A stretch of 64,000 bases of DNA, taken from Actinacidiphila yeochonensis CN732. Its GTDB lineage: Bacteria > Actinomycetota > Actinomycetes > Streptomycetales > Streptomycetaceae. The notes under the pieces were generated by a model. It was not told where the DNA came from and did no database searches. It worked only from the letters and a program-made list of their open reading frames with translations. The stretch lies in the NCBI RefSeq assembly GCF_000745345.1, contig NZ_JQNR01000005.1, positions 4,402,001 through 4,466,000 on the forward strand. Reading direction: 5' to 3'. Shown here in pieces: positions 43,181 through 60,713 of this stretch (positions are counted from its first letter, which is position 1; every line of letters starts with the position of its first letter). The translations under genes were made by a program, and so were the position numbers.

Positions 43181-45045
43181 TCAACCGGATGCATTCCGCG
43201 CCACGTTCGCCGGCACGGTGCCGGCGCCCGGGACGAGCCTGCCGTGGTCGTCGACCACGTGGTCGATCACGCTGTCCCCGTCGAGGGAGACGGCCAGCAG
43301 GTCGTGGAAGACCCCCCGGGCCGTTCCGGCGCCTCGAAGGAACGGGCGGTGCGGATCGGGGGATCGGTGCCGGAGCGGCAGAACGAGCCGAGGCCCTACG
43401 CCTCGTGGTGCCGCGCGTCCGCGCCCAGCGCGCCCACCGTCCACCCGGCCGTGCCGTCGGGGCGCCGGTACGCGGCCCGGTCCGGCGGATCGCAGGGCGG
43501 CTCGTTCCGGAACACCACGGTGCGGCCGCTCTCTCCGTTCCCCACCACGTCGTGCTGCTGGAAGTGCTCCGCGGACAGTCCGGTGGCCAGCACGCCGGCG
43601 CCGTGGACCACCACGCCGTCGGCCGCCGTGCCGACTGCCCGGCCCGCTCGGGCGCCGCGGTCGGCCCGCCACGCCCGGACGTGGTCGAGCAGGACGTTGT
43701 CGCTGTTGACCACCAGCGCCGCCGCCGTCAGGCCGGCGTCCGCGCCGCCCATCCGGAAGAACACGTCCTGCACCGAGGCCGGTTCGCGCGGATCGACGCG
43801 CCCGCCGCACCGGTCGCCGACCTCCAGCAGCGCCCGCGACCCGCACGGCCCGGCGTCGAAGAGCAGCCCCGCGATCCGCACCCCGCGCGCGTCGGCGACC
43901 GTCATCGCCACCACCCCGTCCTGCGGGACCAGCGTCGCGTAGCCGAGCCCCAGCACCACCGTGCCCGCCCACTTGACCCGGATGGTGTCGGCCAGCCGGT
44001 ACACGCCCGGGGTGAGCAGCAGGTGCCTGCCCTGCGCCAGCGCCCGGTTGACGGCGCGTGCCGAGTCCTCCGGCCGCGCCACGAAGAACCGCTCCAGCGG
44101 CACCGACGTCCCCTCGGGCGGGCCGGCCGCCCACGTCGGCCCCACCCCGTCGCGGTGCGGCGCCGGCAGGAACACCCGGTAGGCGCCCGCGCCGTCCACG
44201 TACAGGAACGGCTTCTCGCGGCTGAGCGGGCTGGTGGGCAGCGTGCCGCACGGCGGGGCCGGGAGAGACCGCGCCGGCGCCTCCTCGACACCGGCGAAGA
44301 CCTGGCCGACCGTCGCGTCGGGTTGGCCCGCCGCCGTGGTCGACCAATTCGCCACCGAGCTGTCCCGGAACAGCCACCGCTGCCCTGCCGCGTCGACGAC
44401 CGGACCGTCCACCACCGAGTCCGCGACGAACCCGGCGCCGTCGCGGCCGCCCTCGCCGGGGGAGAGGCAAAGCCGCCCGCGGACGTGCACCCGGCGCAGC
44501 GGCGCCCCTTGCGAGGCCGCCCACAGGTGGTCGCCGCCGGCGGGCACCACCGCCAGGTTCTCGGCCGACCGCCAGGGGTTCGCCGGCGCTTCGTCCCCGT
44601 CGCCGGGCCGGTCCCGCCCCGCCGCCCGCACGGCGCCGTTGACGGTCACGTCGTCCGGGTGCGTGCCGAGCCCCGCCACCGAGGTGTAACAGCCGAGCCG
44701 GACGTCCACGTCGTAGCTGCCGGGCTTGAAGAGGAACGCGTACCGGCCGGTGCCGAACTCGGCGCCCGCCTGTTCGGCCGCGGCGTCCAGGGCCGCCTGG
44801 ATCTCCTCGGCCGGGGTCCGAGGGTCGAACACCCTGACGTTCGGGCCGAGGTCCGGCTGCGCGGCCCGCCGGGCCCGGACGGGGGCGTCCGCATCCGCGG
44901 GGGCGGCCGCCCCGGCCGCGGGCACCGTGGTGGCCAGCGCGGCGGCGGTCATGGACCTCCGCCGGCAGAGCGCGCTCTGCGACCGGGCCGCGGGCGCGCC
45001 GCCCGGCTCCCGTGCTGCGGTGCCTGCGGCCCTGCTTGAAGACAT
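43181..45045 (-). pseudogene. Secreted beta-helix protein (pectate-lyase-like fold), interrupted near the C-terminus
   Basis: From ATG 45045 the frame encodes 549 residues to a TAG at 43396. A Tat/Sec-like start (CRRRSMTAAALATTVPAAGAAAPADA) leads into PDLGPNVRVFDPRTPAEEIQAALDAAAEQ, FLFKPGSYDVDVRLGCYTSVAGLG, LLTPGVYRLADTIRVKWAGTVVLGLGYATL and NSDNVLLDHVRAWRAD, a right-handed beta-helix family annotated in Streptomyces under misleading names. After the TAG the same frame continues GLGSFCRSGTDPPIRTARSF, then a GGGGGG run shifts the frame and VFHDLLAVSLDGDSVIDHVVDDHG follows to a stop at 43181. Either a decayed gene, or sequence errors combined with a genuine early stop. Confidence 0.72.
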
Positions 45046-45161
45046 GGCGGATGACCAACCTCTGTACGGACGGCACGGGCGTGCCACGGTGCGGGCGGGC
45101 GCTCGCGGGTGCGGCCGGGCGGTGCGTTCCCACTGCGCCGGAAGGCCGGTGGGGACCCGCT

Positions 45162-45241
45162 GAGAGCGCTCTCTGCGACGTACCCTGGGCTGCTCGGGGC
45201 TGCGTGTCAAGGCCCGGAGGGCAGCTGGTGAGAGCGCTCTC
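45162..45241 (-). promoter_or_regulatory. Promoter flanked by two identical LacI-type operators
   Basis: GAGAGCGCTCTC, a perfect palindrome, occurs at 45162-45173 and 45230-45241 (68 bp apart). Between them on the minus strand are TTGACA (45210-45205), 17 bp, and CAGGGT (45187-45182). This is a repression loop or block arrangement for the beta-helix gene starting at 45045. Confidence 0.72.
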
Positions 45242-45597
45242 TTCCGGTTGGCGCGGCAGCGCTGGGCGGGGCTGGCGTGGCGGATGAGGTCACGGCGGGG
45301 TGACGCCCCGGTCAAGGCGAGGACGCGGCGGCGGGACCGGAGCCGCCGCTCCGCGCGCCGTACCGGTCCTGGCCGGAGCGGCGCCCAACGGGTTCTGGCC
45401 GGACAGGCGTTGTACCGGTCCTGGCCGAACGGCGCCCGGCCCGGTCGTCGGAGAAGGCCGGTCCCGGCGCTCGGACGGTGCGGGCGCCCGGTGCCGCACC
45501 GGTGCGGTCGCGGGAGGGACCGGCGAAGGGCTCCGGCCTGCTTGAGCGGTTGATCCCGGTGCGGCAGGCGTGTGCGGGTCCCATGGGACGCGGACGC
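45242..45597. other. Non-coding region between operator and terminator
   Basis: No gene recognised. A diverged direct repeat with core GTACCGGTCCTGGCCG occurs near 45361 and 45413. Confidence 0.45.
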
Positions 45598-45667: not shown

Positions 45668-48600
45668 TCACCAGTGCCAGCCGCCCGACAGCAGGTGGAC
45701 GCTCGTGGACGCGAGGGTGTGCAGGCCGGACACGACCTTCGTGCCCACCGGAGCGACGTCCTTGAAGGCGTTTTCCACCGCCCGGCCCTGGCCGAAGGTG
45801 ATCAGCGACAGGGCGGTCAACCCGGCGGAGTGGGCGAACTCGCTGCTGGTCACCCCGTACCCGATCCCGGTGAATATGGTGCTGGTGATGTCGCCCGCCA
45901 CGGACGCCTCGTCCAGCACCTCCGCCGCTCCCACCAGCAGGAGGGCCCCTGGTTCGTCGCCGGTGAGGGCGGAGTAGCCGGCCATGCCGTAGCAGCCGAG
46001 GGCGCTGAGCGAGCCCGCCAGCGCGAGCGACTCCGACACGTCGGCGAACTCCCGTGAGTCCTCCTGCCACCAGGGCAGCTCGTCGGCGCTGGTCCCGTTC
46101 TCGTTGACCTGGTCGTTGACGGCGTTGTCGGCGGGGTTGGTGCCGTCCTGCCGGGCCTTCTGCGCCGCCGCCGCTGCCGCCCGCGCGGCCGCGGCCGCCT
46201 CGGCCTTCCGCTTGTCGGCGGCGGTGCGGCGGGCTGCGGTGGCCGCCGCCGCGGCGGTCTGCGCGTCCTGCCCCGCGGTGAGCGCGGACTGGCGTGCGCT
46301 GGACGCCGACGCCTGGGCGCCGGCGGCGGAGCTCTGGGCGCTGCGGGCCGAGTCGACCGCCTTGTTGGCCGAGTAGTTCGCCGAGCGGGCGGCGCCCTGC
46401 GCGGTGGCCGCCGCGGCCAGGGCCAGGTCCGCCGAAGCCTGCGAGGCCGCGGCGGACGTGTCCGCGTCATCCGCGTTCTGCCTCGCCTGCGTGGCGTACT
46501 GGGCCGCCTGGTTCGCCGACGCCTGCGCCTTGCTGGCCCAGTCGGCGGCCTCGGCCGCGTCGTCGCGGGCCTCCGCGGCCGCCTGCGACGCCAGCGCCGC
46601 GTCCTGCTGCGCGAGTTGGGCGACCTTCGCGGCGCCGGTGGTCGCGGCGGTGATCGCCGCGTTGTGGGCCGCGAAGTCGTGGTCGAGCTGTGCGGACTTG
46701 TGCTGGACCTGCTGGACGAAGTTCCGCCGCATCCACGTCGGGCCCTCCATCGCCACCGTGGCGAAGGCCTTGGTGTAGGGCCCGCCGGTGTTCAGGAGCT
46801 GAGCGGTGGCGACGCCGTCGTCGCCGCGGACGGCCACGGCGTAGTCGGTCGCGAAGAAGTCGTGCAGCGCCTGCGCGGTGGCCGCGTCGAGGGCGGACCG
46901 TGCCGCCGCCGTGACGGCCGTTCCGGGGCCGGCGGAGAGGACCTGCGCGATGCCGACGCGGTTGTCGTCCGCGGCGGCCTCGATCACTCCGGTGGTGAGG
47001 AAGGCCCCCACCGCCGCCGGATCGTCGCTCGACAGCGCGACCTGTGCGGCCTGGGCGACGTCGGGGGTCGAGACCTGTGCGAGGTAGAGCGCGGACTCCG
47101 CGTCGTCCTGGCCCTGGGCGATGGCCCGGTCGGCGCCTATCCAGGCGTGGAGGTCGCTGTCCGAGCCGGACAGGGCGAACTGGGCGGCCTGCCGCGTCCA
47201 GGAGCCCGGCGCCTCCAGGAGGCCGACGGCGGCCTTGCGGCCCAGCGCCGTCGCCGAATCCGGGTCGTTGCCCGCCAGCGCCTGTTCGGCCTGGGCGATC
47301 AGGTCCAGCAGAGCCTGCGAGGTCTGCTGTGCCTGGGTGCGGTTGGTCTCGTACGCCGCCTGCTGGTCCGCCTCGATCCTGGCCAGTTCCGCGGCCTCGC
47401 TCAGACCCTGCTGCTTGTCCGCCTCCACCCGCGCCAGCTCCGCGTCCAGCGCCGCCTGGGCCACCGTCATCGCGTTCTCGACGGCCTGGGTGGCGGTGTC
47501 GGCGGCCGCCAGGGCCGCGGTGGCGTGGGCGGTGGACTGGTTCGCGTAGTCGCGTGCCTGGCCGGCGTACTCCGCCGCCTCCTCGGCGGCGTCCGCCGCG
47601 GCGTCCGCGTGGTCCGCCGCGTCGTTGGCGGCGTCGCGCGCGGTGCGCGCGGCCGTCGCCGCCGTGTCGGCCTGGGACTGCGCGGCGGCCGCGGCGGTCG
47701 TGGCCTGGCTGGCGGCGGCGTCGGCGGTGGCGGCCTCGCGCCTGGCCACGGCCGCGTCCTCCTGGGCCGCGCCCGAGGCCGCGGCTGCCTGGGCGGAGGC
47801 GTCGGCGGCCGCGGCGGCGTCGCGGGCCGCGGCGGCGGCGGCCGAGCCGGCACCGGCGGCCTGCGCGGAGGCGGTCGCGGCGTAGTCGGCGGCCTGCGCG
47901 GCCGACCGGGCCTTCGCGGCGGCGTCGCGGGCGGCGACCGCGGCGTCCTTCGCGTCGTCGGCCTTGGAGGCGTCCTTGGACGCGGCGATGGCCGAGTTGT
48001 ACGCCTTCGCGGCGGCGCCGCCGGCGGCCGCGGCCGCGTGCGAGGCGGAGTTGGCGGCGGTGGCGGCACGGCGGGAGGCGGCCACGGCGGAGGTGGAGGC
48101 CTTGATGGCGTTCCGGGCGGCGTTCGCCGCGCCCTTCGCGGCGGCGGCCGCCTTGCGGGCGGCCGCCCCGGACTTCTCGACGTCCTGCTCCGCCTCCTGT
48201 GCCTCAGCGGCCGCCGCCTCGGCGGCGGCCCTGGCCTCCGTCGCGGCGGTCGCGGCCCGGTCGGACGCCTCGACGGCGAGGACGGTCTGCGCCTGGGCGT
48301 ACTTGCCCTCCCGGTCCACGACCTCGATCAGCTCGTCGATCGTCGCCAACTCCTGGTCACGGGCGCGGGCGATGTGCTGGCCGGTGTCGAGGAACCACTC
48401 GAACTCCTCCACGGTGTCGGCGGTGAGGGCCCGGCCCGCGTACTTCCTCACCTCGGGTCCGGCGCTGACCAGCAACTGGCTGATCTGCACCCGCATGTCG
48501 GACTGGCGGGCGGAGTACTGGCTGGTCAGGAGGAAGCCCTCGAAGGCCTCCTGGGTGTCGGTGCTGAGAGCGGCCGTGGCCGCCTTGGTGACGGACGTGC

Positions 48601-49057
48601 CCCCGGTGCTGGCGACGTTGACGGTGGCCACCCGCAGGTCCTCCACCACGGCGGACCGGTACCCGCCGGCGAGGAAGGCGGCCACGTCACCGTCGCTTCC
48701 GCCCAGGGCGTCGGTCGACGCCCGGCGCAGTCCCGTGCCCGCGACGGCGAGGTAGGCGAGAACGGCGCTGCGGTTGTCCTGCGCGGTCGCCTGCGGAAGG
48801 CCGGCGGCGAGGAAGGACCGGACGTCGGCGTCGGTGCCGTAGAGGGCGTCGGCCGCGGCGGCTCTGACGCCCTGTCCGCCCGCGGTCCAGGCCCGGACCG
48901 CCCGGGCCCGGTCGGTGTCCGGCAGCGGATCGGCCGTCCCGGCGTCCGTACCGTCCGCGCGGGCCACGGGCGCCAGCGCCAGAGGGGAGGCCGCGGCGGC
49001 CGTGACCGCCGCCATGGCGCCGAGGAACCGGCGCCGGCTCCAGAAGGTGGTCTGCAT
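45668..49057 (-). CDS. Large Tat-exported ALF-repeat protein with alternating coiled coils
   Basis: A 1129-aa protein from ATG 49057. Tat signal SRRRFLGAMAAVTAAAAS (7-24) with a cleavage site near ARA-DG. Residues about 60-235 contain four ALF-type repeats (AAADALYGTDADVRSFLAAG, RASTDALGGSDGDVAAFLAGG and two more, about 43 aa each). About 240-620 is an extremely Ala-rich coiled coil; a second ALF set covers about 620-775 (RQAAQFALSGSDSDLHAWIG and others); a second coil runs to about 970; and a 150-residue C-terminal domain holds SLALAGSLSALGCYGMAGYSALTG and LTALSLITFGQGRAVENAFKDVAP. ALF proteins often carry C-terminal toxin domains; none is recognised here. Probably secreted or surface-displayed. 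Function unknown. Confidence 0.82.
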   Translation of the reverse strand: MQTTFWSRRRFLGAMAAVTAAAASPLALAPVARADGTDAGTADPLPDTDRARAVRAWTAGGQGVRAAAADALYGTDADVRSFLAAGLPQATAQDNRSAVLAYLAVAGTGLRRASTDALGGSDGDVAAFLAGGYRSAVVEDLRVATVNVASTGGTSVTKAATAALSTDTQEAFEGFLLTSQYSARQSDMRVQISQLLVSAGPEVRKYAGRALTADTVEEFEWFLDTGQHIARARDQELATIDELIEVVDREGKYAQAQTVLAVEASDRAATAATEARAAAEAAAAEAQEAEQDVEKSGAAARKAAAAAKGAANAARNAIKASTSAVAASRRAATAANSASHAAAAAGGAAAKAYNSAIAASKDASKADDAKDAAVAARDAAAKARSAAQAADYAATASAQAAGAGSAAAAAARDAAAAADASAQAAAASGAAQEDAAVARREAATADAAASQATTAAAAAQSQADTAATAARTARDAANDAADHADAAADAAEEAAEYAGQARDYANQSTAHATAALAAADTATQAVENAMTVAQAALDAELARVEADKQQGLSEAAELARIEADQQAAYETNRTQAQQTSQALLDLIAQAEQALAGNDPDSATALGRKAAVGLLEAPGSWTRQAAQFALSGSDSDLHAWIGADRAIAQGQDDAESALYLAQVSTPDVAQAAQVALSSDDPAAVGAFLTTGVIEAAADDNRVGIAQVLSAGPGTAVTAAARSALDAATAQALHDFFATDYAVAVRGDDGVATAQLLNTGGPYTKAFATVAMEGPTWMRRNFVQQVQHKSAQLDHDFAAHNAAITAATTGAAKVAQLAQQDAALASQAAAEARDDAAEAADWASKAQASANQAAQYATQARQNADDADTSAAASQASADLALAAAATAQGAARSANYSANKAVDSARSAQSSAAGAQASASSARQSALTAGQDAQTAAAAATAARRTAADKRKAEAAAAARAAAAAAQKARQDGTNPADNAVNDQVNENGTSADELPWWQEDSREFADVSESLALAGSLSALGCYGMAGYSALTGDEPGALLLVGAAEVLDEASVAGDITSTIFTGIGYGVTSSEFAHSAGLTALSLITFGQGRAVENAFKDVAPVGTKVVSGLHTLASTSVHLLSGGWHW

Positions 49058-49658
49058 AAGCGTGTTGTCCCTGTCCTCGTCATGAAGGCCGGCGGGCGAG
49101 TCGGCGACCGGTGGCACAACTGTCGCCGGCACAACCGCCTGTTGGCGGACGGTTGAATTCCGCATTGCCGTTTGTTGAATCGGCTGTTCGAAGTGGCAGG
49201 GGATGCTCGCAGGGCCGATTCGGCAAGGTCAACGGGGTCGTTCGCTTTCCGCGTTTCCTGTTGTCGGTTCGAGCCAATTTCCTCCGGCCGGCTGATCCAC
49301 CAGTTGGGATTTCCGCCCCCGGATGTGACATCCCGTGACGGCGGGACAGGAGATGGGGCGACTATGCCGATCCTTGGGAAAAAGTTGACGTTGTTCCGGT
49401 ATCGCATGTGCCGGCGGCGGATTGGTGGTGCCTGTGTGGCAGGTGTGGCATGTGGTGCGGTCCGCGCCACCCGGACGGTCGACCGGCAGGCTGCCTCCGC
49501 CGGATTCCGGTGGCGCGGGTGGAGTGCTTCCGTGCGAGGGGGATCTGGCGGGTTTCCGATCTCCGGTGGTTGCCCGGCCGGGGGGCGTGTGCGAATTTCG
49601 CGTCTTTGAGAGGCCGGTGAGCCGTTCGCCCACCGGTGAGGCGAAGAACAGGACACTC
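49058..49658. other. 601-bp divergent intergenic region, lower GC
   Basis: Promoters for the ALF gene and the opposite secreted-protein gene must lie here. GC is visibly lower between 49150 and 49420. GGATGT-G-ACATCC (49321-49333) is a perfect inverted repeat; TTGACG at about 49384 (plus) and TTGACC near 49230 (minus) are possible -35 boxes without convincing -10 partners. Confidence 0.45.
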
Positions 49659-50165
49659 ATGAGATTTCTGACTCGTGCGCTGCTCACGGGCCTGGCCGCC
49701 GGCGCTGTCGCGCTCGGGACCGTGTTCGGCGCGGCGCATCGCCCGGGGGACGGTCCGGCCGTCGCACCGGCGGCGGCGGACGCTCCGGCGTACGCGGTGG
49801 AGGACTACGCGTATCCGCACGCGGACCAGGTCCTCGCGGAGCAGGGGATCGTGCTCAAGCGGGGCAACGGGCGCATCCTGCTGGCGGACTGCGGCAGCGA
49901 GACCGGACTGATGGAGGTCTGGTCCCGCGACCTGGCCCAGGAGGAGGTGTGTTTCCGGGTGACGCCCGGGCCGGGCTACCTGAGCCTGGAGGTCCCCTCG
50001 GTCTACCTCGTCAAGGGCGCGGGCGACACCTCCGGCACGGTCACGATGACCTATGACGGGGAGCAGAGCGCGTACGACGTTCCGCAGGACACCTATACGG
50101 CGGTCGGTGAGGGCGCCGACCCGGGGCACGAGTACGAGCTGCTGGAGATCGTCACCAGTGGCTGA
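49659..50165 (+). CDS. Small secreted protein with one cysteine pair
   Basis: A 168-aa protein from ATG 49659 (the longer open frame upstream lacks a ribosome site and signal). Signal peptide 1-26 (FLTRALLTGLAAGAVALGTVFG), then YAYPHADQVLAEQGIVLKRGNGRILLADCGSETGLMEVWSRDLAQEEVCFRVTPGPGYLSLEVPSVYLVKG. Two cysteines likely form one disulfide in a compact beta-rich domain. No known domain name comes to mind, but I recall similar proteins encoded just before FG-GAP pseudoprotease genes in streptomycetes. It is 55 bp upstream of such a gene, in one likely operon. Confidence 0.75.
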   Translation: MRFLTRALLTGLAAGAVALGTVFGAAHRPGDGPAVAPAAADAPAYAVEDYAYPHADQVLAEQGIVLKRGNGRILLADCGSETGLMEVWSRDLAQEEVCFRVTPGPGYLSLEVPSVYLVKGAGDTSGTVTMTYDGEQSAYDVPQDTYTAVGEGADPGHEYELLEIVTSG

Positions 50166-50220
50166 CCGGCCACCACGTCACCGACCCTCACCCCGTTCAC
50201 TCACCGATAAGGAACCGGTT

Positions 50221-52122
50221 TTGAGAGCCGTACGCAAGGCCCGATCCGCCGCCGTGGCCGTCCTGACCGCGGTACTGGTGGCGGCGCCATCGACCTTCTT
50301 CGCCCTGCCCGCCCAGGCCGTCACGGGCACCGCGCAGCCGGACGACTCCTACGCGTTCACCGCGCAGCTGGCCGTCGGCCACTACCAGCACGGCTGCTCG
50401 GCCGTCCTGGTGGACCGGGACTGGCTGCTCACCGCGGCCGGCTGCTTCGCCGACGATCCGGCGGCGAGCCTGGCGGTGCCCGCGGGCAAGCCCGCGCAGC
50501 CGACCGTGGCCACCATCGGCCGCACCGACCTCACCGGCACCGGCGGCGAGGTGCGCGACGTGGTCGAACTCGTGCCGTACTCCGGCCGGGACGTCGTGCT
50601 GGCCAAGCTGTCCGCCCCGGTCCTGGACATCGCCCCCGCGGTACTCGGCGGCACGGCCCCCGTCGCGGGTGAGCAGCTGGTGACCGCCGGGTACGGCCGT
50701 ACCGCGGACGAGTTGTCCCCGACGAAGCTGCACAGCGGCGTCTTCACCGTCGACGCGGTGAACGGGAGCGACGTGCGGGTCAGCGGCCAGGACGGCGCCA
50801 CCGTGTGCACCGGTGACGCCGGCGGTCCGGTCCTGCGGACCACCGGCGGCAGGACCGAGCTGGTCGCCCTGGACAGCCGCTCCTACCAGGTGGGCTGCTA
50901 CGGGGTGGATACCGCCGACGGCACTCCGGACAGCGCCGTCGACACCCGCGTGGACGACCTGGCCTCCTGGATCACCGGACAGACCGGGACCCCTCGCGCC
51001 AACGACTTCAACGGCGACGGCAGGTCCGACGTCTCCTACCTGTACGACTACGGCGCGCTCAGCGACGGTTCGCTGCACTCCGCGCTGTGGGTGCACTCCT
51101 CGAACGGCGCCGGCTTCGACGCTCCCGTCAAGGTGTGGGACACGGGTACCACGAGTTGGAACTGGGACCGTACCAAGATGGTCTCCGGTGACTTCAACGG
51201 TGATGGCAGGTCGGATGTCGGGGCCTTGTACAACTACGGTGCCAATGCGGATGGTTCGTTGCATTCGGCGTTGTGGACGTTCACTTCGACCGGTTCTGGT
51301 TTCAATGCTCCGGTGAAGGTGTGGGATACGGGTACCACGAGTTGGAACTGGGATCGCACCATGCTGGTTGCCGGTGACTTCAACGGTGATGGCAGGTCGG
51401 ATGTCGGGGCCTTGTACAACTACGGTGCCAATGCGGATGGTTCGTTGCATTCGGCGTTGTGGACGTTCACTTCGACCGGTTCTGGTTTCAATGCTCCGGT
51501 GAAGGTGTGGGATACGGGTACCACGAGTTGGAACTGGGATCGCACCATGCTGGTTGCCGGTGACTTCAACGGCGACGGCAGGTCCGACGTCGGGGCCTTG
51601 TACAACTACGGTGCCAACGCGGACGGTTCGCTGCACTCCGCGTTGTGGACCTTCACCTCGACGGGGTCCGGCTTCAACCCGCCCGTCAGGCTGTGGGATA
51701 CGGGTACCACCAGTTGGAACTGGGACCGTACCAAGCTGGTCGCCGGTGACTTCAACGGCGACGGCAGGTCGGATGTCGGGGCCTTGTACAACTACGGTGC
51801 CAACGCGGACGGTTCGCTGCACTCCGCGTTGTGGACCTTCACCTCGACGGGGTCTGGCTTCAACCCGCCCGTCAGGCTGTGGGACACGGGTACCACCAGT
51901 TGGAACTGGGACCGTACCAAGCTGGTCGCCGGTGACTTCAACGGCGACGGCAAGTCCGACGTCGGCGCGATGTACGACTACGGCGTCAAGGCGGACGGCA
52001 CCACCAGCCGTTCCGGGCTGTGGACCTTCACCTCGACCGGTGCCGGATTCAACGCTCCCGTCCAGGTCTGGGACTCCGGCGCGGCGAGCTTCGCGTGGAG
52101 CGGGATGGCCATGGTGGTCTGA
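50221..52122 (+). CDS. Secreted trypsin-fold pseudoprotease with FG-GAP/VCBS repeats
   Basis: A 633-aa protein from TTG 50221 (AAGGA at 8 bp). Signal peptide 1-33 (LPAQA-V). Residues 38-255 have the S1 protease fold: CSAVLVDRDWLLTAAGCF, GRDVVLAKL, VTAGYGR and VCTGDAGGPVL. The catalytic His is Gly74 (TAAGC for TAAHC) and the catalytic Ser is Ala200 (GDAGGP for GDSGGP), while Asp124 remains, so it should not cleave peptides. Residues 262-633 are six 62-aa repeats with calcium-binding DFNGDGRSD loops and LHSALWTFTS, probably a small beta-propeller. Likely a binding or scaffold protein outside the cell. Confidence 0.86.
   Translation: MRAVRKARSAAVAVLTAVLVAAPSTFFALPAQAVTGTAQPDDSYAFTAQLAVGHYQHGCSAVLVDRDWLLTAAGCFADDPAASLAVPAGKPAQPTVATIGRTDLTGTGGEVRDVVELVPYSGRDVVLAKLSAPVLDIAPAVLGGTAPVAGEQLVTAGYGRTADELSPTKLHSGVFTVDAVNGSDVRVSGQDGATVCTGDAGGPVLRTTGGRTELVALDSRSYQVGCYGVDTADGTPDSAVDTRVDDLASWITGQTGTPRANDFNGDGRSDVSYLYDYGALSDGSLHSALWVHSSNGAGFDAPVKVWDTGTTSWNWDRTKMVSGDFNGDGRSDVGALYNYGANADGSLHSALWTFTSTGSGFNAPVKVWDTGTTSWNWDRTMLVAGDFNGDGRSDVGALYNYGANADGSLHSALWTFTSTGSGFNAPVKVWDTGTTSWNWDRTMLVAGDFNGDGRSDVGALYNYGANADGSLHSALWTFTSTGSGFNPPVRLWDTGTTSWNWDRTKLVAGDFNGDGRSDVGALYNYGANADGSLHSALWTFTSTGSGFNPPVRLWDTGTTSWNWDRTKLVAGDFNGDGKSDVGAMYDYGVKADGTTSRSGLWTFTSTGAGFNAPVQVWDSGAASFAWSGMAMVV
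51004..52119 (+). repeat. Six 186-bp tandem repeats inside the pseudoprotease gene
   Basis: Units start at 51004, 51190, 51376, 51562, 51748 and 51934. Units 2 and 3 appear identical over all 186 bp; units 4 and 5 differ at only a few silent sites. Units 2-3 use many A/T-ending codons unlike the rest of the gene. Confidence 0.92.
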
Positions 52123-52253: not shown

Positions 52254-52484
52254 TCAGCCGCCGTCGGTCCAGGTGAGCTCCTTGAGCGCCATCCGGGCGG
52301 CGGGGGAGCTGTCCGGGAGCGTGGACCAGTAGGGGTGGGCGCTGATCCGGACGGACAGCCGCACCAGCCGGCGGCGCAGCGCGGTCGTACGGGAACCCGG
52401 GCCGCCGCCCGCGGCCAGCTCGCGGTAGGTGGTGTACCAGTCGCGCTGGGCCTGGACCAGGTCGTGGGGGAAGGAGTGGGGCAT
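52254..52484 (-). CDS. Conserved small hypothetical protein
   Basis: A 76-aa protein from ATG 52484 (AGAATCCAGCC upstream, weak ribosome site). The sequence MPHSFPHDLVQAQRDWYTTYRELA, ALRRRLVRLSVRISAHPYWSTLP and ALKELTWTD is compact, helical and resembles small proteins common in Streptomyces. No function is known. The enclosing longer frame (to 52670) is not protein-like. It sits between the pseudoprotease terminator and the rhamnose operon, in the orientation of the latter. Confidence 0.7.
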   Translation of the reverse strand: MPHSFPHDLVQAQRDWYTTYRELAAGGGPGSRTTALRRRLVRLSVRISAHPYWSTLPDSSPAARMALKELTWTDGG

Positions 52485-52691
52485 GGCTGGATTCTGGCAT
52501 AGACTCGAACGTGTGTGCGATGAGGGTTCGCCGGGCGGGCGGCGACGGGGTTCGGGGCGCGCGGTGCCAGGGCCCTGACCGCACCCCTGCCGACCGGGCC
52601 CTGACCGGGGCCCGACCGGTCTTGACCGGCCCCGACCCGTTCGCGGGCCTGGCCGGGTACCCGCTGGCACGCGGCTGCGCGGCGGTCGGCG

Positions 52692-54179
52692 TCAGCTCGC
52701 GGTGAGGCGGGACTCGGCCGCGTCCCACGCGCGCGGGTCGCCCTGGGGGGTGAAGTGCCGCAGCGGCTGGGTGTCGGCGACCAGCCGCCGCATGCCCGCC
52801 AGGTCGCCGACCAGCCCGTGCGCCCGGGCCTGGACGAGGATGTTGCCGAGCGCGGTCGCCTCGGCCGGGCCGGCCGCGACCGGCAGCCCGGTGGCGTCCG
52901 CGGTGAGCTGGCACAGCAGGTCGTTGCGGCTGCCGCCGCCGACCAGGTGGACGCGCGTGATGTCGCGCCCGGCGAGCTCGGCGGCCTGCCGCAGCACCCG
53001 CCGATGGGCCAGCGCCAGGCTCTCCAGGACCGCGCGCACCAGCGCCGCCTGGCCGTCGGGCGGTCGCTGCCCGGTGCGGGCGCAGGCGGCGGCGATGGCG
53101 GCCGGCATGTCGTCGGGGGCGAGCAGGCCGGGCGTGTCGGGGTCGAAGACGGCGGCGAACGGCCGGGCGCGGGCCGCCTCGTCGAGCAGCCGCGGCAGCT
53201 CGGCCGGCAGCCCGCGCCCGGCCCACACCCGGCGGCACTCCTCCAGCAGCCACATGCCCATGATGTTGCGCAGGTAGCGGACGGTGCCGTCGATGCCGCG
53301 CTCGTTGGTGAAGTTGGCCGCCCGGGACGCCTCGGTGAGGACCGGCGCGTCCAGTTCGAGCCCGGCCAGCGACCAGGTGCCGCAGGAGATGTACGCGAAT
53401 CCCGGCCCGGTCGCGGGCACGGCGGCCACCGCGGAGGCGGTGTCGTGCGAGGCGACGGTGGTGACCGGCGTGGACGCGGGCAGCCCGGTCGCGGCGGCCA
53501 CGTGCGGCAGCAGGGTGCCCGCCGGGGAGCCGGGTTCGCGCAGCGGCGGCAGCAGGGCCGGGTCCACGCCGAACCGCTCGGCCAGGCCGGTGGCCCAGGT
53601 GCCGGTGCGGGCGTCGAGCAGGCCGGTGGTGGAGGCGTTGGTGGTCTCGGCGCCGAGGGTGCCGGTCAGCCAGTAGGCGAGCAGGTCGGGCACCAGCAGC
53701 AGGGCGCGGGCCGCGCCGAGCGCCGCCGAACCGCGGGCGGCGGCCAGCTGGAAGACGGTGTTGAACGGCAGGTGCTGCACCCCGTTGACCTGGTACAGCT
53801 CCCGTGCCCCGACGGCGTCCCGCTCCCGCTCGGCGATGCCCGCCGTCCGCGGGTCGCGGTAGTGGTGCGGCAGGCCGAGCAGGTGGCCGTCGGCGTCGAG
53901 CAGGCCGTAGTCCACGGCCCAGCTGTCGATGCCGACCGAGGCCGCGCCGCCGGCCCGCGCCGCCCTCCGCAGGCCGGCGAGGACCTCGCCGTACAGCCCG
54001 AGCAGGTCCCAGTGCAGGCCGCCGGGGAGCCGGACCGGGCGGTTGGCGAAGCGGTGCAGCTCGGCCAGGTCGAGCCGGCCGGGCCCGAGGTGGCCGAGGA
54101 TCACCCGGCCACTGGTCGCGCCGAGGTCCGCGGCGGCGAACGCGGCGGTGGCGGCGGGCTGCGGGGCGGTGCTGGTCAC
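52692..54179 (-). CDS. rhaB: Rhamnulokinase
   Basis: A 495-aa FGGY kinase from GTG 54179. It phosphorylates L-rhamnulose to L-rhamnulose 1-phosphate. Signature regions: AADLGATSGRVILG (phosphate loop), LPGGLHWDLLGLYGEVL, SVGIDSWAVDYGLLDADG, PFNTVFQL, VASHDTASAVAAVPATG, YISCGTWSLAGLEL and HLVGGGSRNDLLCQLTADATG. Last gene of the minus-strand rhamnose catabolic series, 182 bp after rhaEW in a spacer with GGTCGGGAC repeats. Expression is likely driven from the operator-controlled promoter at 57.9 kb. Confidence 0.93.
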   Translation of the reverse strand: MTSTAPQPAATAAFAAADLGATSGRVILGHLGPGRLDLAELHRFANRPVRLPGGLHWDLLGLYGEVLAGLRRAARAGGAASVGIDSWAVDYGLLDADGHLLGLPHHYRDPRTAGIAERERDAVGARELYQVNGVQHLPFNTVFQLAAARGSAALGAARALLLVPDLLAYWLTGTLGAETTNASTTGLLDARTGTWATGLAERFGVDPALLPPLREPGSPAGTLLPHVAAATGLPASTPVTTVASHDTASAVAAVPATGPGFAYISCGTWSLAGLELDAPVLTEASRAANFTNERGIDGTVRYLRNIMGMWLLEECRRVWAGRGLPAELPRLLDEAARARPFAAVFDPDTPGLLAPDDMPAAIAAACARTGQRPPDGQAALVRAVLESLALAHRRVLRQAAELAGRDITRVHLVGGGSRNDLLCQLTADATGLPVAAGPAEATALGNILVQARAHGLVGDLAGMRRLVADTQPLRHFTPQGDPRAWDAAESRLTAS

Positions 54180-54361
54180 GGTGGGGCGTCCTCGGCGGGG
54201 GAGGGGCGGCGCGCCGGGCGCCGCCGGGTACGGGCTCGTCCCGCCCGCCGGTCCGGCCCGGGGCACGGACCGGCGGGCGGGACGGCGGGGTGGGACACGG
54301 CGGTCGGGACCGCGGTCGGGACACGGCGGTCGGGACGGGTTGGGCGGGGCCGCCGCGGGCG

Positions 54362-56434
54362 TCAGCGCAGGAAGGCGGCGGCCACGCCCGCGTCCACCGG
54401 CACGTGCAGGCCGGTGGTGTGGGTGAGGTCGCCGCCGGTCAGCGCGAAGACGGCGTTGGCGACGTGCTCGGGCAGCACCTCCCGCTTGAGCAGGGTGCGC
54501 TGGGCGTAGAACTCGCCGAGCTTCTCCTCCGGCACCCCGTAGACCGCGGCGCGCTTGGCGCCCCAGCCGCCGGCGAAGATGCCCGAGCCGCGCACCACCC
54601 CGTCGGGGTTGACGCCGTTGACGCGGATGCCGTGCTCGCCCAGTTCGGCGGCCAGCAGCCGCACCTGGTGGGCCTGGTCGGCCTTGGTGGCGGAGTACGC
54701 GATGTTGTTGGGGCCGGCGAAGACCGCGTTCTTCGAGGCGATGTACACGATGTCCCCGCCCATGCCCTGCTCGGCCATCACCCGCGCTGCCTCCCGGGAG
54801 ACCAGGAAGGAGCCGCGGGCCATGATCGAGTGCTGGAGGTCCCAGTCGCGGGCGGTGGTCTCCAGCAGCGGCTTGGAGATCGAGATGCCCGCGTTGTTGA
54901 CGACCAGGTCGACGCCGCCGAAGGCGAGTGCCGCGTCCCTGAACGCCTCGGCGATCTGCTCCTCGCTGGTGACGTCGACGGAGACCGCGACGGCCCGGTC
55001 CGGCCCGCCGATCTCCTCCGCGACGGTCCGCGCTCCCTCGGCGTTCAGGTCGGCGACGACCACGCAGGCGCCCTCGGCGGCGAGCCGATGCGCGATGGCC
55101 CGGCCGATGCCGGACCCGGCCCCGGTGACCAGCGCGATCCTGGTGGCCAGCGGCTTGGGCGCGGGCATCCGGCGCAGCTTGGCCTCCTCCAGCTCCCAGT
55201 ACTCGATGCGGAACTTCTCCGCCTCCTCGATCGGCTGGTACCGGGAGACCGCCTCCGCGCCGCGCATCACGTTGACGGCGTTGACGTAGAACTCGCCGGC
55301 CACCCGGGCGGTCTGCTTGTCCTTGCCGTAGGTGAACATGCCGACGCCCGGGATCAGGAAGACCGCCGGGTCGGCGCCGCGCATCGCGGGGGAGCCGGGC
55401 TCGGCGTGCCGCCGGTAGTAGGCCGCGTACTCCTCGCGGTACTCGGCGTGCAGCTCGCGCAGCCGCGCCGCGGCCTCCTCCAGCGGCGCGGTGGCCGGCA
55501 GGTCCAGGACCAGCGGGCGGACCTTGGTGCGCAGGAAGTGGTCGGGGCAGGAGGTGCCCAGGGCTGCCAGCCGCGGGTGCTCGGCGCGGCAGAGGAAGTC
55601 CAGTACCTCGTCGCCGTCGGCGAAGTGTCCCACCTGCGGGCGGTCGGTGGAGGCCAGGCCGCGCAGCAGCGGGGCCAGCGCGGCCGCCCGCTCGCGCCGT
55701 TCCGCCTCGGGCAGCGGCTCGTAGCCGGGCAGCACCGGGCCGAACGGCTCGGCCCTGCCGCGTTCGCGCAGGAACGCCTCGGCGGTGCGGATGACGTACA
55801 GCGAGTTGGCTTCGCACTCCTCGCTGGTGGCGCCCCACGCCGTGATGCCGTGCCCGCCCAGGACGCACCCGACGGCCTGCGGGTTGGCGGCCTTGACCGC
55901 GGCGATGTCCAGGCCGAGCTGGAAGCCGGGCCGGCGCCAGTCCACCCAGACCACGCGGTCGCCGAAGCACTCCTTCGTCAGCGCCGCGCCGTCGGCCGCG
56001 CAGGCCAGTGCGATGCCGGAGTCGGGATGCAGGTGGTCGACGTGGGCGGCGTCGACCAGGCCGTGCATCGCGGTGTCGATGGACGGCGCCGCGCCGCCCC
56101 GGCCGTGCAGGCAGTAGTCGAAGGCGGCCACCATCTCGTCCTCGCGGTCCACCCCCGGGTAGACGTCCGCCAGCGCGCGCAGCCGGTCCAGCCGCAGTAC
56201 GGCCAGGCCCGGCCCGGTGAGGGTGCCGAGGTCCCCGCCCGAGCCCTTGACCCACATCAGCTCGGTGTCCGCGCCGGTGACGGGGTCGGGCGCCAGGCCC
56301 TTGGCGGAGGTGTTGCCGCCGGCGTAGTTGGTGTTGCGGGGGTCGGCGCCCAGCCGGTGCGAGCGCTCCAGCAGCGCTGCGACGGCCGGGTGCTGCTGGT
56401 CCTGGTGCTGGTCCTGGTGCGGGGTGGAGGCCAT
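54362..56434 (-). CDS. rhaEW: Bifunctional rhamnulose-1-phosphate aldolase / short-chain dehydrogenase
   Basis: A 690-aa fusion from ATG 56434 (GAAGGACA). The N-terminal class II aldolase domain (about 1-400) shows NTNYAGGNTSAKG, ELMWVKGSGGDL, DHLHPDSGIALA (zinc-binding His pair), CVLGGHGITAWG and VFLIPGVGMFTYGKDKQTARVAGEFYVNA. The C-terminal SDR domain (about 430-690) has LVTGAGSGIGRAIA, NNAGIS and YSATKAD. The aldolase splits rhamnulose 1-phosphate into DHAP and L-lactaldehyde, and the SDR is expected to oxidise lactaldehyde to lactate, as in TIGR02632-type enzymes. It lies between rhaI and rhaB. Confidence 0.94.
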   Translation of the reverse strand: MASTPHQDQHQDQQHPAVAALLERSHRLGADPRNTNYAGGNTSAKGLAPDPVTGADTELMWVKGSGGDLGTLTGPGLAVLRLDRLRALADVYPGVDREDEMVAAFDYCLHGRGGAAPSIDTAMHGLVDAAHVDHLHPDSGIALACAADGAALTKECFGDRVVWVDWRRPGFQLGLDIAAVKAANPQAVGCVLGGHGITAWGATSEECEANSLYVIRTAEAFLRERGRAEPFGPVLPGYEPLPEAERRERAAALAPLLRGLASTDRPQVGHFADGDEVLDFLCRAEHPRLAALGTSCPDHFLRTKVRPLVLDLPATAPLEEAAARLRELHAEYREEYAAYYRRHAEPGSPAMRGADPAVFLIPGVGMFTYGKDKQTARVAGEFYVNAVNVMRGAEAVSRYQPIEEAEKFRIEYWELEEAKLRRMPAPKPLATRIALVTGAGSGIGRAIAHRLAAEGACVVVADLNAEGARTVAEEIGGPDRAVAVSVDVTSEEQIAEAFRDAALAFGGVDLVVNNAGISISKPLLETTARDWDLQHSIMARGSFLVSREAARVMAEQGMGGDIVYIASKNAVFAGPNNIAYSATKADQAHQVRLLAAELGEHGIRVNGVNPDGVVRGSGIFAGGWGAKRAAVYGVPEEKLGEFYAQRTLLKREVLPEHVANAVFALTGGDLTHTTGLHVPVDAGVAAAFLR

Positions 56435-56658
56435 CGAGGTGTCCTTCGCGGGAGCGGTTCTACGGCGGCGGGTGCGGCGTGGGCGGCGGGATCGGGAGCG
56501 GGTGGCGGCGGGGAGCGGGTACGGGTGAGCGGTACGCGGAGACCCCCTCCGCGCAACGGGCGTGACCGACCTGGCGGCGGGCGCCCGGCCGGGGCGGGGC
56601 GGCCGGGCGGGAGAGCACGGGGGCGGGGCCCGAGCGGGGGCGGGGCCGGCCGGGTGGC

Positions 56659-57825
56659 TCAGGCGCCCCAGCCGGCCTGCTGCCCGCCGACCCGCTCCGC
56701 CCTGATCCGCTCGCCGTAGCCGGTGGCCCGGTAGGCCGCGACCGGATCGGCGGCGAGCCCCTGCTCCTCGCGGACCTCGGCCAGCAGCGGGCGGACGTCG
56801 GTGTTGTAGGCGTCCATCAGCACCGCGTTGGCGCCGAGCACGTCGCCGGAGGTCTGCGCGGCGCGCAGCGCGTCCTGGTCGACCAGCAGCGCCTTGGCGG
56901 TGGCCTCCTGGACGTTCATCACCGAGCGGACCACCGCCGGGATCTTCTCCTCGATGTTGTGGCACTGGTCCAGCAGGAAGGCCACTTCGGTCTCCTCCCG
57001 CAGGCCGCCGTTCTTGGCCACCTCGTGCATGATCCGGAAGAGCTGGAACGGGTCGGCGGCCCCGGCCATCAGGTCGTCGTCGGCGTAGAAGCGGGAGTTG
57101 AAGTCGAACCCGCCGAGCTTGCCCTCGCGCAGCAGCAGCGCGACGATGAACTCGATGTTGGTGCCCGGCGCGTGGTGCCCGGTGTCCACCACCACCTGCG
57201 CCTTCGGGCCCAGCCGGGCGCAGTGCAGGTAGGCGGTGCCCCAGTCCGGCACGTCCATGGTGTAGAAGGACGGCTCGAAGAGCTTGTACTCCAGCAGCAT
57301 CCGCTGGCCTTCGCCCAGCCGCTCGTACACCGCGGACAGCGCCTCGGTCAGCCGTCCCTGACGTGCCGTCACGTCGTCCTGGCCGGGGTAGTTGGTGCCG
57401 TCGGAGAACCACAGCTTGAGGTCGCGCGAGCCGGTGGCGTCCATGATGTCGACGCACTCCAGCAGGTGCGCCAGGGCCTTGGCGCGCACCGCCGGGTCGG
57501 GGTGGGTGACGGAGCCGAGCTTGAAGTCGTCGTCCTGGAAGACGTTGGAGTTGATCGCGCCGACCGCCACGCCCTGCTCCTTGGCGTACGCCGCCAGGGC
57601 CGCGTAGTCGTCGACCCGGTCCCACGGGATGTGCAGCGACACCAGGGGCGCCGCGCCGGTGGTCGCGTGCACCTGCGCCGCGTCGGCCAGCTTCTCGTAC
57701 GGGTCGCGCGGCACCCCGGCCTGCGCGAACACCTTGAACCGGGTGCCCGAGTTGCCGTAGCCCCAGGACGGGGTCTCGATCCGCTGGGCCTTCAGCGCCG
57801 CCTTCACGGCCGACAGGTCTGTCAT
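56659..57825 (-). CDS. rhaI: L-rhamnose isomerase (RhaI type)
   Basis: A 388-aa protein from ATG 57825 (GAGG upstream); an earlier ATG at 57849 lies inside the operator and is unlikely. It converts L-rhamnose to L-rhamnulose. Family regions: ETPSWGYGNSGTRFKVF, VSLHIPWDRVDDYAALAAYA, GAINSNVFQDDDFKLGS, LKLWFSDGTNYPGQDD, LLEYKLFEPSFYTMDVPDWGTAYLHC, VVVDTGHHAPGTNIEFIVALLL and GGFDFNSRFYADDDLMAG, including the Glu/Asp/His metal ligands of the TIM barrel. First gene of the catabolic operon; promoter TTGACA-17-TAGGGT lies upstream. Confidence 0.95.
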   Translation of the reverse strand: MTDLSAVKAALKAQRIETPSWGYGNSGTRFKVFAQAGVPRDPYEKLADAAQVHATTGAAPLVSLHIPWDRVDDYAALAAYAKEQGVAVGAINSNVFQDDDFKLGSVTHPDPAVRAKALAHLLECVDIMDATGSRDLKLWFSDGTNYPGQDDVTARQGRLTEALSAVYERLGEGQRMLLEYKLFEPSFYTMDVPDWGTAYLHCARLGPKAQVVVDTGHHAPGTNIEFIVALLLREGKLGGFDFNSRFYADDDLMAGAADPFQLFRIMHEVAKNGGLREETEVAFLLDQCHNIEEKIPAVVRSVMNVQEATAKALLVDQDALRAAQTSGDVLGANAVLMDAYNTDVRPLLAEVREEQGLAADPVAAYRATGYGERIRAERVGGQQAGWGA

Positions 57826-57836
57826 GGCAACCTCTG

Positions 57837-57887
57837 TGAATCGTTTCATTTAGCGCGAACCCTATGGCGGGGGTTGTGCGCTGTCAA
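57837..57887 (-). promoter_or_regulatory. rhaI promoter with downstream LacI-type operator
   Basis: Minus strand: TTGACA (57887-57882), 17 bp, TAGGGT (57864-57859), then operator TGAATCGTTTCA (57837-57848 in plus coordinates) over the early transcribed region. Binding there would block rhaI transcription. Confidence 0.8.
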
Positions 57888-57930
57888 TGTCCCCGGCGCG
57901 CGAGTGCGGCCGGGGCGCGGGGGCTGTTAT

Positions 57931-57942
57931 TGAATCGTGTCA
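57931..57942. promoter_or_regulatory. Second rha operator
   Basis: TGAATCGTGTCA, close to the TGAATCGATTCA consensus, 44 bp upstream of the rhaI -35 box. It could act with the other sites in looping. Confidence 0.6.
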
Positions 57943-58054
57943 TCGCCGCTCCAGGCAACCCTCAAGCACCTTTGAGTGAAGGGAAAATCCTCGGGTTGAC
58001 GGGTTCGAGGCCAGTTCGGAGCGGTGCCGGGCCGGACCGGGCGTGCCGGAAGTC

Positions 58055-58109
58055 TTGACGGGCCGACGGGGCAGGGCTAACGTCCCGGCAAATCAATTGA
58101 AACATTTCA
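58055..58109 (+). promoter_or_regulatory. Promoter of the rhamnose ABC operon with operator
   Basis: TTGACG (58055-58060), 17 bp, TAACGT (58078-58083), then TGAAACATTTCA (58098-58109) just downstream of the expected start. Same operator family as the rhaI promoter. Confidence 0.78.
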
Positions 58110-58143
58110 CGGCTGATGCACACCGGGAGACCCAGGAGTGGCC

Positions 58144-59664
58144 ATGACCGACCCCGCACCGGAACGGACTCCGGTCCTCGCGCTGGAGGGGGTGAGCAAG
58201 TCCTTCGGCGCGGTACGAGCCCTGCGCGACGTCTCCCTGCGGCTGTACGCGGGCGAGGCGCACGCCCTGGCGGGCGAGAACGGCGCCGGCAAGTCGACGC
58301 TGATCAAGACGCTGGCCGGGGTGCACCGGCCGGACAGCGGCAGCGTCCTGATCGACGGTCACCCCGTGGTCCTCCACGGGCCGGCCGACGCCCGCGACGC
58401 GGGAGTCGCGGTGATCTACCAGGAACCCACGCTCTTCCCCGACCTGTCGGTCGCCGAGAACATCTTCGTCGGCCGCCAGCCCCGCCGCTCCCTCGGCCGG
58501 GTGGACCACCGGGCCGTCCGCGAGGCCGCCGCCGCGCTGTTCGCCCGCCTCGGCGTCGACCTCGACCCCGAACAGCCCGCCCGCGGCCTGTCCATCGCCG
58601 ACCAGCAGCTGGTCGAGATCGCCAAGGCGCTCTCCTTCGACGCCCGGGTGCTCATCATGGACGAGCCCACCGCCGCCCTCACCGGCAGCGAGGTCTCCCG
58701 GCTCTTCGGCGTGGTGCGGGCGCTGCGCGAGGCCGGCGCCGCGGTGCTGTTCATCTCGCACCGCCTGGAGGAGGTCTTCGCGCTGTGCCAGCGCGTCACC
58801 ACCCTGCGGGACGGCGCCTGGATAGCCACCGAGCCCGTCGACGGCCTCACCGAGGACGACCTGGTGCGCCGCATGGTCGGCCGCGACCTCGACGAGCTGT
58901 ACCCCAAGCAGGAGGCGCGCATCGGGGACGTCGCCCTCGGGGTGCGCAGGCTCACCCGCGAGGGCGTCTTCACCGACGTCTCCTTCGAGGTCCGGCACGG
59001 CGAGATCGTCGCGCTGGCCGGACTGGTCGGCGCCGGCCGCAGCGAGGTCGCCCGCGCGGTGTTCGGCGTGGACCGCTGGGACGCCGGCGAGGTGGAGGTC
59101 GACGGCCGCCGCCTGAAGCCCGGCGCGCCCAGTCTCGCCATGGCCGCCGGGCTGGCCCTGGTGCCCGAGGACCGCCGCGCCCAGGGCCTGGTGATGGAGA
59201 TGTCCATCGCCCGGAACATCAACCTCACCGGTCTGCGCGCCACCAGCCGGGCCGGCGTCATGGACCGCGGCGCCGAACGCAGCCGCGCGGTGGACTGGGC
59301 GCTGCGCCTCCAGGTCAAGTACGCCCGGCTGGCCGACCTGGTGGGCACCCTCTCCGGCGGCAACCAGCAGAAGGTGGTGCTGGCCAAGTGGCTGGCCACC
59401 AGCCCCCGGGTGCTCATCGTCGACGAGCCCACCCGCGGCATCGACGTCGGCACCAAGGCCGAGGTGCACCGGCTGCTGTCCCAACTGGCCGCCGACGGAC
59501 TGGCCGTCCTGATGATCTCCTCCGACCTGCCGGAGGTCCTGGGCATGGCCGACCGGGTGCTGGTGATGCACGAGGGCCGGCTCACCGCGGAGATCGCGCG
59601 CGCCGACGCCACCGAGGAGACGGTCATGGCCGCGGCCACCGGCCGGGCGAGGAGCGCAGCATGA
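58144..59664 (+). CDS. rhaT: Rhamnose ABC transporter, double ATP-binding subunit
   Basis: A 506-aa protein from ATG 58144 (AGGAG at 5 bp; a GTG at 58138 lies inside that site). Two ABC domains: the first has Walker [10 protein letters not shown] (44-52), signature [18 protein letters not shown], Walker B VLIMDEPT; the second has a degenerate Walker [10 protein letters not shown] and signature [17 protein letters not shown] followed by [12 protein letters not shown], as in RbsA/MglA-type sugar importers. It overlaps the next gene by 4 bp (ATGA). The rhamnose assignment follows from the divergent rhaI-EW-B operon and shared operators. Confidence 0.92.
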
Positions 59665-60713
59665 CCATGACCGCCAAGCCGGCCGCGGCGCCGGCCGGCC
59701 CCGCCACCGCCGGCCGCGGCCTCCTCGACCGGGTGCTCAAGGTCCGCGAACTGGCCATCCTCGTCGTCCTGGTGCTGATGCTGCTGGCCACCCAGCTGGA
59801 CAACAGCGCCTTCCTGTCCGAGCAGGGCATCAAGGACCTGCTGCTCAACGCCACCATCCTGGTCCTGGTCGGCGTCGGCCAGTCGATGGTGGTGATCACC
59901 CGCAACGTCGACCTGTCGGTGGGCTCCACCCTCGGCGTCACCGCCTTCGCCGCGGGCGAGTTCCTGCGCGGCGGCGGCAACCCGGTGCTCGCGATCGTCA
60001 TCGCCGTCGCCATCGGCGCCGGCTTCGGCCTCGTCAACGGCCTGCTGGTGAGCCTGGGCCAGGTGCCCGCCCTCGTCGTCACCCTCGGCACCCTCTACAT
60101 CATCCGCGGCCTGGACTCCGTCTGGTTCGGCTCCCGCCAGATCACCGCCGCCGACCTGCCCTCGGGCTTCGTCGGGTTCGGCCACGACGGCCTCGGCGCC
60201 GTCCCCTACCTCGCCCTGCTCACCGCGGCCGTGCTCGTCGTCGCGGCCTCCTACCTGCGCGGCTACCGCAGCGGGCGCGACCTGTACGCGCTCGGCTCCA
60301 GCCCCGAGGCCGCGCGGCTGGCCGGCGTGGCCGTCCGCAAGCGGCTGCTGACCGCCTACGTCGCCTGCGGCGCCCTGGCCGGACTGGCCGGCGCCCTGTA
60401 CCTCGCCCGGTTCGGCAACGTCGACTCCGGCACCGGCAACGGCTACGAACTGACCGTCGTCAGCGCGGTCGTGGTCGGCGGCGTCGCCTTCACCGGCGGT
60501 TCCGGCAGCGTCTACGGGGCCGCCCTCGGCGCCCTGCTGCTCACCTCGATCAACAGCGTGCTGCCCTCCATCGGCGTCAGCTCGGTGTGGGTGCAGGCCA
60601 TCGACGGCGTCCTGCTGCTGCTGGCCATCGCCGTGGACCGGGTGGTCGCGCTGCGGGTCGCCGCACTGCTCCGCAAGAGGGCCGCACAGACAAGGAGTGC
60701 CCACCATGGCTGA
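59661..60713 (+). CDS. rhaP: Rhamnose ABC transporter permease 1
   Basis: A 350-aa membrane protein from ATG 59661, overlapping the ATPase gene. Eight to ten hydrophobic segments with the BPD-transporter-2 motif: [68 protein letters not shown] (ATPase contact region GLVNG) and [24 protein letters not shown]. It forms half of the membrane channel together with the next gene product. Translational coupling is likely at both ends. Confidence 0.92.

What the first reader, a model, noticed from the sequence alone, without database searches (positions are those of the whole stretch)
49659..52122. Secreted partner plus trypsin-fold pseudoprotease with propeller repeats: candidate undescribed system
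The large protein keeps the S1 fold and Asp124 but has Gly for catalytic His and Ala for catalytic Ser, so the fold is retained for binding. It is fused to six calcium-loop FG-GAP repeats and preceded by a small disulfide-containing secreted protein. Such a pair could act as a ligand-binding surface complex, perhaps with the divergent ALF protein.
Basis: partly seen in the sequence, partly recalled or inferred. Interest (0 to 1): 0.62.

Follow-up and report, generated by a model that had tools for sequence, protein, structure and literature searches.

The report
An umbrella toxin gene cluster
The inactive trypsin-like protein, its small secreted neighbour and the divergent repeat protein are the three parts (UmbA, UmbB, UmbC) of an umbrella toxin particle, a secreted weapon that Streptomyces-type bacteria use against related bacteria, described in 2024; this is an ordinary new member of that family.

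Summary
Window 45668-52122 holds a complete umbA-umbB-umbC umbrella toxin locus. Each of the three proteins matches a different chain of PDB 8W20/8W22, the cryo-EM structure of the S. coelicolor Umb1 particle: pseudoprotease to chain C (UmbA1, 1e-71), small protein to chain B (UmbB1, 5e-25), ALF protein to chain A (UmbC1, 1e-92). UmbA's trypsin fold is known to be inactive and to bind UmbB through its cleft. Here the UmbB Ala-Val-Glu-Asp motif and the UmbA arginine that pairs with its glutamate are kept. Among 35 UmbA trypsin domains, none keeps the histidine, all keep the aspartate, and three keep the serine. In 35 genomes of the genus, UmbA, UmbB and eight-ALF UmbC occur together in the same five, always adjacent. 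The six 62-residue FG-GAP repeats form the lectin end; alone they match only 9OEE, probably UmbA4. Particulars here: one particle with one lectin in this genome, unusually uniform lectin blades (blades 2 and 3 identical in DNA over 180 bases compared), a short hydrophobic UmbC C-terminus probably related to '4TM tox', and no recognisable linked immunity gene. New member of a known kind; low interest.

The parts
50221..52122 (+). umbA: signal peptide, inactive trypsin-like domain (about residues 35-252), six-bladed FG-GAP propeller lectin (about residues 262-633)
   Evidence: PDB 8w20_C (UmbA1) 1.2e-71 and 9oee_A 4.3e-83
50341..50976 (+). Trypsin-like pseudoprotease domain: Gly74 for His, Asp124 kept, Ala200 for Ser, Arg160 equivalent to UmbA1 Arg156 that contacts UmbB
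   Evidence: Arg156 role from PMC11062931
51004..52119 (+). Six FG-GAP units of 62 aa (one propeller blade each); units 2 and 3 (from 51190 and 51376) identical in DNA over the 180 bases compared
   Evidence: lectin alone hits only 9oee_A, 5e-39
49659..50165 (+). umbB: small secreted adaptor with the Ala-Val-Glu-Asp motif (Glu48) and two cysteines
   Evidence: PDB 8w20_B (UmbB1) 4.6e-25; motif in 8 of 8 proteins aligned
45668..49165 (-). umbC: twin-arginine signal (SRRRFLG; an ATG at residue 37 is a possible start), 2 x 4 ALF repeats, two Ala-rich coiled-coil stalk segments, short variable C-terminal domain
   Evidence: Pfam ALF, 8 stretches, 5.5e-46; PDB 8w20_A (UmbC1) 1.1e-92
45671..46075 (-). 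Variable C-terminal (toxin) domain of UmbC, about 135 aa, hydrophobic and predicted helical; probably related to '4TM tox'
   Evidence: Found in 15 of 249 family genomes, as a rule inside frames of 1124-1232 aa; alignment and hydropathy
49166..49658 (.). Divergent intergenic region between umbC and umbB; no sigma-70 consensus site found

Best explanation
This is a complete umbrella toxin (Umb) locus. The three proteins are exported, UmbC by the twin-arginine route. The eight ALF repeats of UmbC close into a ring, and its two coiled coils form a stalk that carries a toxin domain at the tip. UmbB binds a subset of the ALF repeats and inserts its N-terminal Ala-Val-Glu-Asp strand into the former substrate cleft of the UmbA trypsin fold. 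That is why UmbA keeps the fold but not the catalytic residues. The six-bladed FG-GAP propeller of UmbA sits at the end of each spoke and binds a cell-wall glycan of a competing actinobacterium, so the particle attaches and the UmbC C-terminal domain, probably membrane-acting, intoxicates it. Shown here by sequence: the three families, their linkage, the degenerate triad and the kept interface residues. Shown by others for S. coelicolor: assembly, spoke structure, glycan recognition and killing. Inferred: that this copy assembles the same way, what its lectin binds, and what its toxin does.
For: Each protein matches its own chain of the Umb1 structure; 8W20/8W22 are the deposited Umb1 structures (PMC11062931). 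UmbB Glu48 and UmbA Arg160 align with UmbB1 Glu48 and UmbA1 Arg156, positions whose substitution abolished binding in UmbB1 and UmbA5. His is lost in 35/35, Asp kept in 35/35, Ser is Thr 24, Ala 8, Ser 3, and the Arg is kept in 35/35. The AVED motif is kept in 8/8 UmbB. UmbA, UmbB and multi-ALF UmbC occur in the same five of 35 genus genomes (G000, G007, G015, G019, G021) and are adjacent in each; one has UmbB and UmbA fused, as reported for the family. Three named Streptomyces loci have the same trio. The ALF residue at the position reported to block ALF6 is charged in ALF6 here (Glu) and Val in ALF3, 4, 7 and 8.
Against: No gene recognisable as an immunity gene (UmbD) lies next to umbC. The C-terminal domain matches no known toxin model. 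ALF2 has Ser at the contact position, so the number of spokes is uncertain. The structure predictions were too weak to use (pLDDT 35 and 39).
Confidence: 0.96

Rival explanations
1. A degraded or toxin-less umbrella locus: the structural parts are intact but the UmbC C-terminus is a truncated remnant, so the particle binds without killing.
For: UmbC is shorter (1165 aa) than the Hint-type UmbC of other genus members (frames of 1346-1402 aa) and has no linked immunity gene.
Against: The same ~135 aa C-terminus recurs in 15 of 249 family genomes in UmbC-like frames of similar size, so it is a conserved domain rather than a remnant. S. coelicolor UmbC2 also has no identified immunity protein yet is the active toxin against S. 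griseus.
Confidence: 0.08
2. An active secreted S1 protease with a carbohydrate-binding propeller that degrades polymers, with the small protein as its inhibitor or chaperone.
For: The S1 fold is fused to a propeller and follows a small secreted protein.
Against: His and Ser are both replaced in this protein; His is lost in all 35 domains aligned; purified UmbA1 and UmbA5 trypsin domains were inactive in published assays.
Confidence: 0.01
3. A producer-side surface ligand-binding complex, not used against other cells.
For: A secreted binding fold with a lectin-like propeller.
Against: Homologous particles are released into the supernatant and inhibit other Streptomyces in an UmbA- and UmbC-dependent way (PMC11062931, PMC13274773); UmbC carries a variable C-terminal domain as polymorphic toxins do.
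Confidence: 0.03

Closest known systems
Umb1 particle of Streptomyces coelicolor (UmbA1, UmbB1, UmbC1; PDB 8W20, 8W22; PMC11062931)
   Same: All three families, eight ALF repeats in two sets of four, Tat signal, two coiled-coil stalk segments, degenerate trypsin fold, AVED motif and its arginine partner.
   Different: UmbC1 ends in a Hint region and a deaminase toxin with a linked Imm1 immunity gene; here the C-terminus is a short hydrophobic domain with no linked immunity gene seen. The lectin also differs.
UmbA4 of S. coelicolor (probably PDB 9OEE; teichuronic-acid-binding six-bladed propeller, PMC13274773)
   Same: Closest solved relative of the lectin part (5e-39); six FG-GAP blades.
   Different: UmbA4 has an extra bulb lectin, and its blades diverge at the sugar pockets; here there is no bulb lectin and the blades are nearly uniform.
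Umb2 particle of S. coelicolor (UmbC2 with '4TM tox')
   Same: A hydrophobic helical UmbC C-terminus and no identified immunity gene.

Membership tests
[quoted passage not shown]
   Eight ALF stretches, SRRRFLG motif and two Ala-rich segments, one between and one after the ALF sets, 1e-92 to UmbC1
Umbrella toxin (Umb) locus | UmbB encoded within ten genes of UmbC | tested here: met
   Adjacent and divergent; 5e-25 to UmbB1; linkage kept in relatives
Umbrella toxin (Umb) locus | UmbA: trypsin-like domain without a complete catalytic triad, plus lectin domain | tested here: met
   Gly74, Asp124, Ala200; six-bladed FG-GAP propeller matching 9oee_A
Umbrella toxin (Umb) locus | UmbB AVED motif and the UmbA arginine that pairs with it | tested here: met
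   UmbB Glu48 and UmbA Arg160; kept in 8/8 and 35/35
Umbrella toxin (Umb) locus | Five-spoked particle secreted and toxic to competing actinobacteria | not testable with these tools
   Needs purification, electron microscopy and growth assays
Umbrella toxin (Umb) locus | Immunity gene (UmbD) next to umbC (common but not required: none is identified for S. coelicolor umbC2) | tested here: inconclusive
   None recognised, but the flanking genes without Pfam matches cannot be excluded
4TM tox (UmbC C-terminal family) | Four-transmembrane-helix toxin domain at the UmbC C-terminus | tested here: inconclusive
   Averaged hydropathy shows a strong double peak and weaker third and fourth segments; the model has four longer helices but pLDDT 39; no reference sequence to compare
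Active S1 protease | His-Asp-Ser triad | tested here: not met
   His and Ser positions replaced

The most novel reading that the evidence does not exclude
A single-particle, single-lectin umbrella system whose lectin has been made uniform by recent blade duplication, giving several near-identical sugar sites for avid binding of one repeating glycan, and whose membrane-acting toxin works without a linked immunity protein. This would be a different targeting strategy from the diversified blades of UmbA4.
Probability: 0.25. Interest if true: 0.35.

Novelty: new member of a known kind. Interest (0 to 1): 0.15.

Why it matters
It extends a known antibacterial weapon to another member of its family and explains a puzzling dead protease: the cleft is a socket for the UmbB adaptor. 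The nearly uniform lectin blades and the missing linked immunity gene are modest, testable points on how umbrella toxins choose targets and how producers avoid harm.

Tried and rejected
AlphaFold models of UmbA (4 sequences, pLDDT 35) and of the UmbC C-terminus (single sequence, pLDDT 39) were too weak to use and were not searched against fold libraries. NCBIfam gives FusH (fusidic acid esterase) at 2.8e-55 over the trypsin part, but far below its curated cut-off (188 versus 999 bits); I took it as shared S1-like sequence, not function, and the PDB name 'Secreted esterase' likewise as a transferred annotation. A search of the genus with the whole UmbC failed for technical reasons and was replaced by the ALF family search. 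A first tally of catalytic residues mixed strands and was discarded; one search replaces it. Candidate immunity genes: the flanking genes 43396-45315 (-) and 52254-52670 (-) have no Pfam match, and a small membrane protein found beside two related umbC genes has no clear homologue in this genome (E = 0.11). The genome-collection scan with UmbB used only six exact peptide patterns, so its three hits are not a measure of distribution.

Full report
What was checked. The two genes of the finding are present as described. The small gene 49659-50165 (+) encodes 168 aa with a signal-like N-terminus and two cysteines (C78, C98). The large gene is best started at the TTG at 50221 and ends at 52122. Its product has an S1 domain (Pfam Trypsin 2.3e-15) followed by FG-GAP repeats (FG-GAP_3 6.7e-17). 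At the catalytic positions it has Gly74 (His), Asp124 (Asp) and Ala200 (Ser), and it has six units of 62 aa beginning DFNGDG.

What it is. The pseudoprotease matches PDB 8w20_C (1.2e-71) and 9oee_A (4.3e-83), both named 'Secreted esterase'. The small protein matches only 8w20_B (4.6e-25). The divergent ALF protein at 45668-49165 (-) matches only 8w20_A (1.1e-92). PDB 8W20 and 8W22 are the cryo-EM structures of the Umb1 umbrella toxin particle of Streptomyces coelicolor (PMC11062931). The three genes are therefore umbA, umbB and umbC. 9OEE is probably the UmbA4 structure of PMC13274773; the text held did not give the accession, so that assignment is inferred from its name, length and domain match.

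How it works, from the published system. [quoted passage not shown] the repeats form a ring and the coils a stalk with a toxin at the tip (PMC11062931). UmbB binds ALF repeats 2, 3, 4, 7 and 8 and inserts an Ala-Val-Glu-Asp strand into the cleft of the UmbA trypsin fold; the glutamate pairs with Arg156 of UmbA1, and substitutions at these positions in UmbB1 and UmbA5 stopped binding. No S. coelicolor UmbA has a full triad, and purified trypsin domains were inactive. The UmbA lectins select targets; UmbA4 binds a teichuronic-acid-like glycan through its propeller (PMC13274773).

Tests on this locus. UmbB Glu48 in AVED and UmbA Arg160 align with the interface pair. Across 35 UmbA trypsin domains the histidine is lost in all (Ser 33, Gly 2), the aspartate kept in all, the serine is Thr 24, Ala 8, Ser 3, and the arginine is kept in all. 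AVED is kept in 8 of 8 UmbB proteins. UmbC carries the eight ALF repeats, the SRRRFLG signal and two alanine-rich segments. At the ALF position where Gln in ALF6 blocks UmbB binding in UmbC1, the window has Val in ALF3, 4, 7 and 8, Ser in ALF2 and Glu in ALF6; the register was set by eye, so this is suggestive only.

Linkage. In 35 genomes of the genus, UmbB matches occur in five (G000, G007, G015, G019, G021). The strong UmbA trypsin-domain matches fall in the same five, as do adjacent eight-ALF proteins. Reading the loci confirmed that the genes are adjacent in each; in G021 UmbB and UmbA are fused, as reported for the family. Three Streptomyces loci (L036-L038) have the same trio. Strong UmbA matches are common in the wider family.

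Particulars of this member. The genome has one UmbA, one clear UmbB and one eight-ALF UmbC, like the single-particle S. griseus strain studied in PMC13274773. Its lectin alone matches only 9oee_A (5e-39), but its blades are more alike (mean pairwise identity 0.78) than those of more distant related propellers (0.36-0.41), with closer relatives between (0.62-0.73). Blades 2 and 3 are identical in DNA over the 180 bases compared and have third-position G+C of 0.68 against about 0.9 in blades 1, 4 and 5, which suggests a recent duplication. The UmbC C-terminus (about 135 aa) has no Pfam match and no significant PDB match but recurs in 15 of 249 family genomes, nearly always in UmbC-sized frames (L085 was probably misread). 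It is hydrophobic and probably related to '4TM tox', the type that the papers' figure legends indicate for S. coelicolor UmbC2, but this could not be tested directly. No immunity gene was recognised beside it.

Verdict.

Noticed in passing
window 51190-51561: Lectin blades 2 and 3 are identical in DNA over the 180 bases compared, with much lower third-position G+C (0.68) than blades 1, 4 and 5 (about 0.9), which suggests a recent tandem duplication of a unit with different base composition.
   Followed up: partly
L086 (ORF 25-469 bases after the umbC stop) and L088 (ORF 22-499 after the stop): A small hydrophobic membrane protein lies directly after two umbC genes with the same kind of C-terminus (before umbB in L086); a candidate immunity protein with no Pfam match and no clear homologue in the window's genome.
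   Followed up: partly
L078, L080, L082, L083, L087: downstream of umbC: A conserved secreted cysteine-rich protein with a weak NucA/NucB DNase match (PF14040, 1.2e-05, tested on L078) follows umbC in five relatives; it was not seen downstream of umbC in the window.
   Followed up: partly
L071 6692-9127 (-): UmbB and UmbA are fused into one 812-aa open frame in a genus member, as reported for some umbrella loci.
   Followed up: yes
L069 4754-6943 (-) and 11397-13067 (+): A genus member carries two umbA genes, one on each side of its umbC-umbB pair, with different lectin parts.
   Followed up: partly
window 52692-60700: To the right lies a sugar catabolism cluster (FGGY kinase, aldolase/short-chain dehydrogenase fusion, isomerase-like protein, sugar ABC transporter), probably for L-rhamnose; unrelated to the toxin locus.
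   Followed up: no
window 43396-45315 (-): A secreted-looking protein of up to about 640 aa after umbC has no Pfam match.
   Followed up: no
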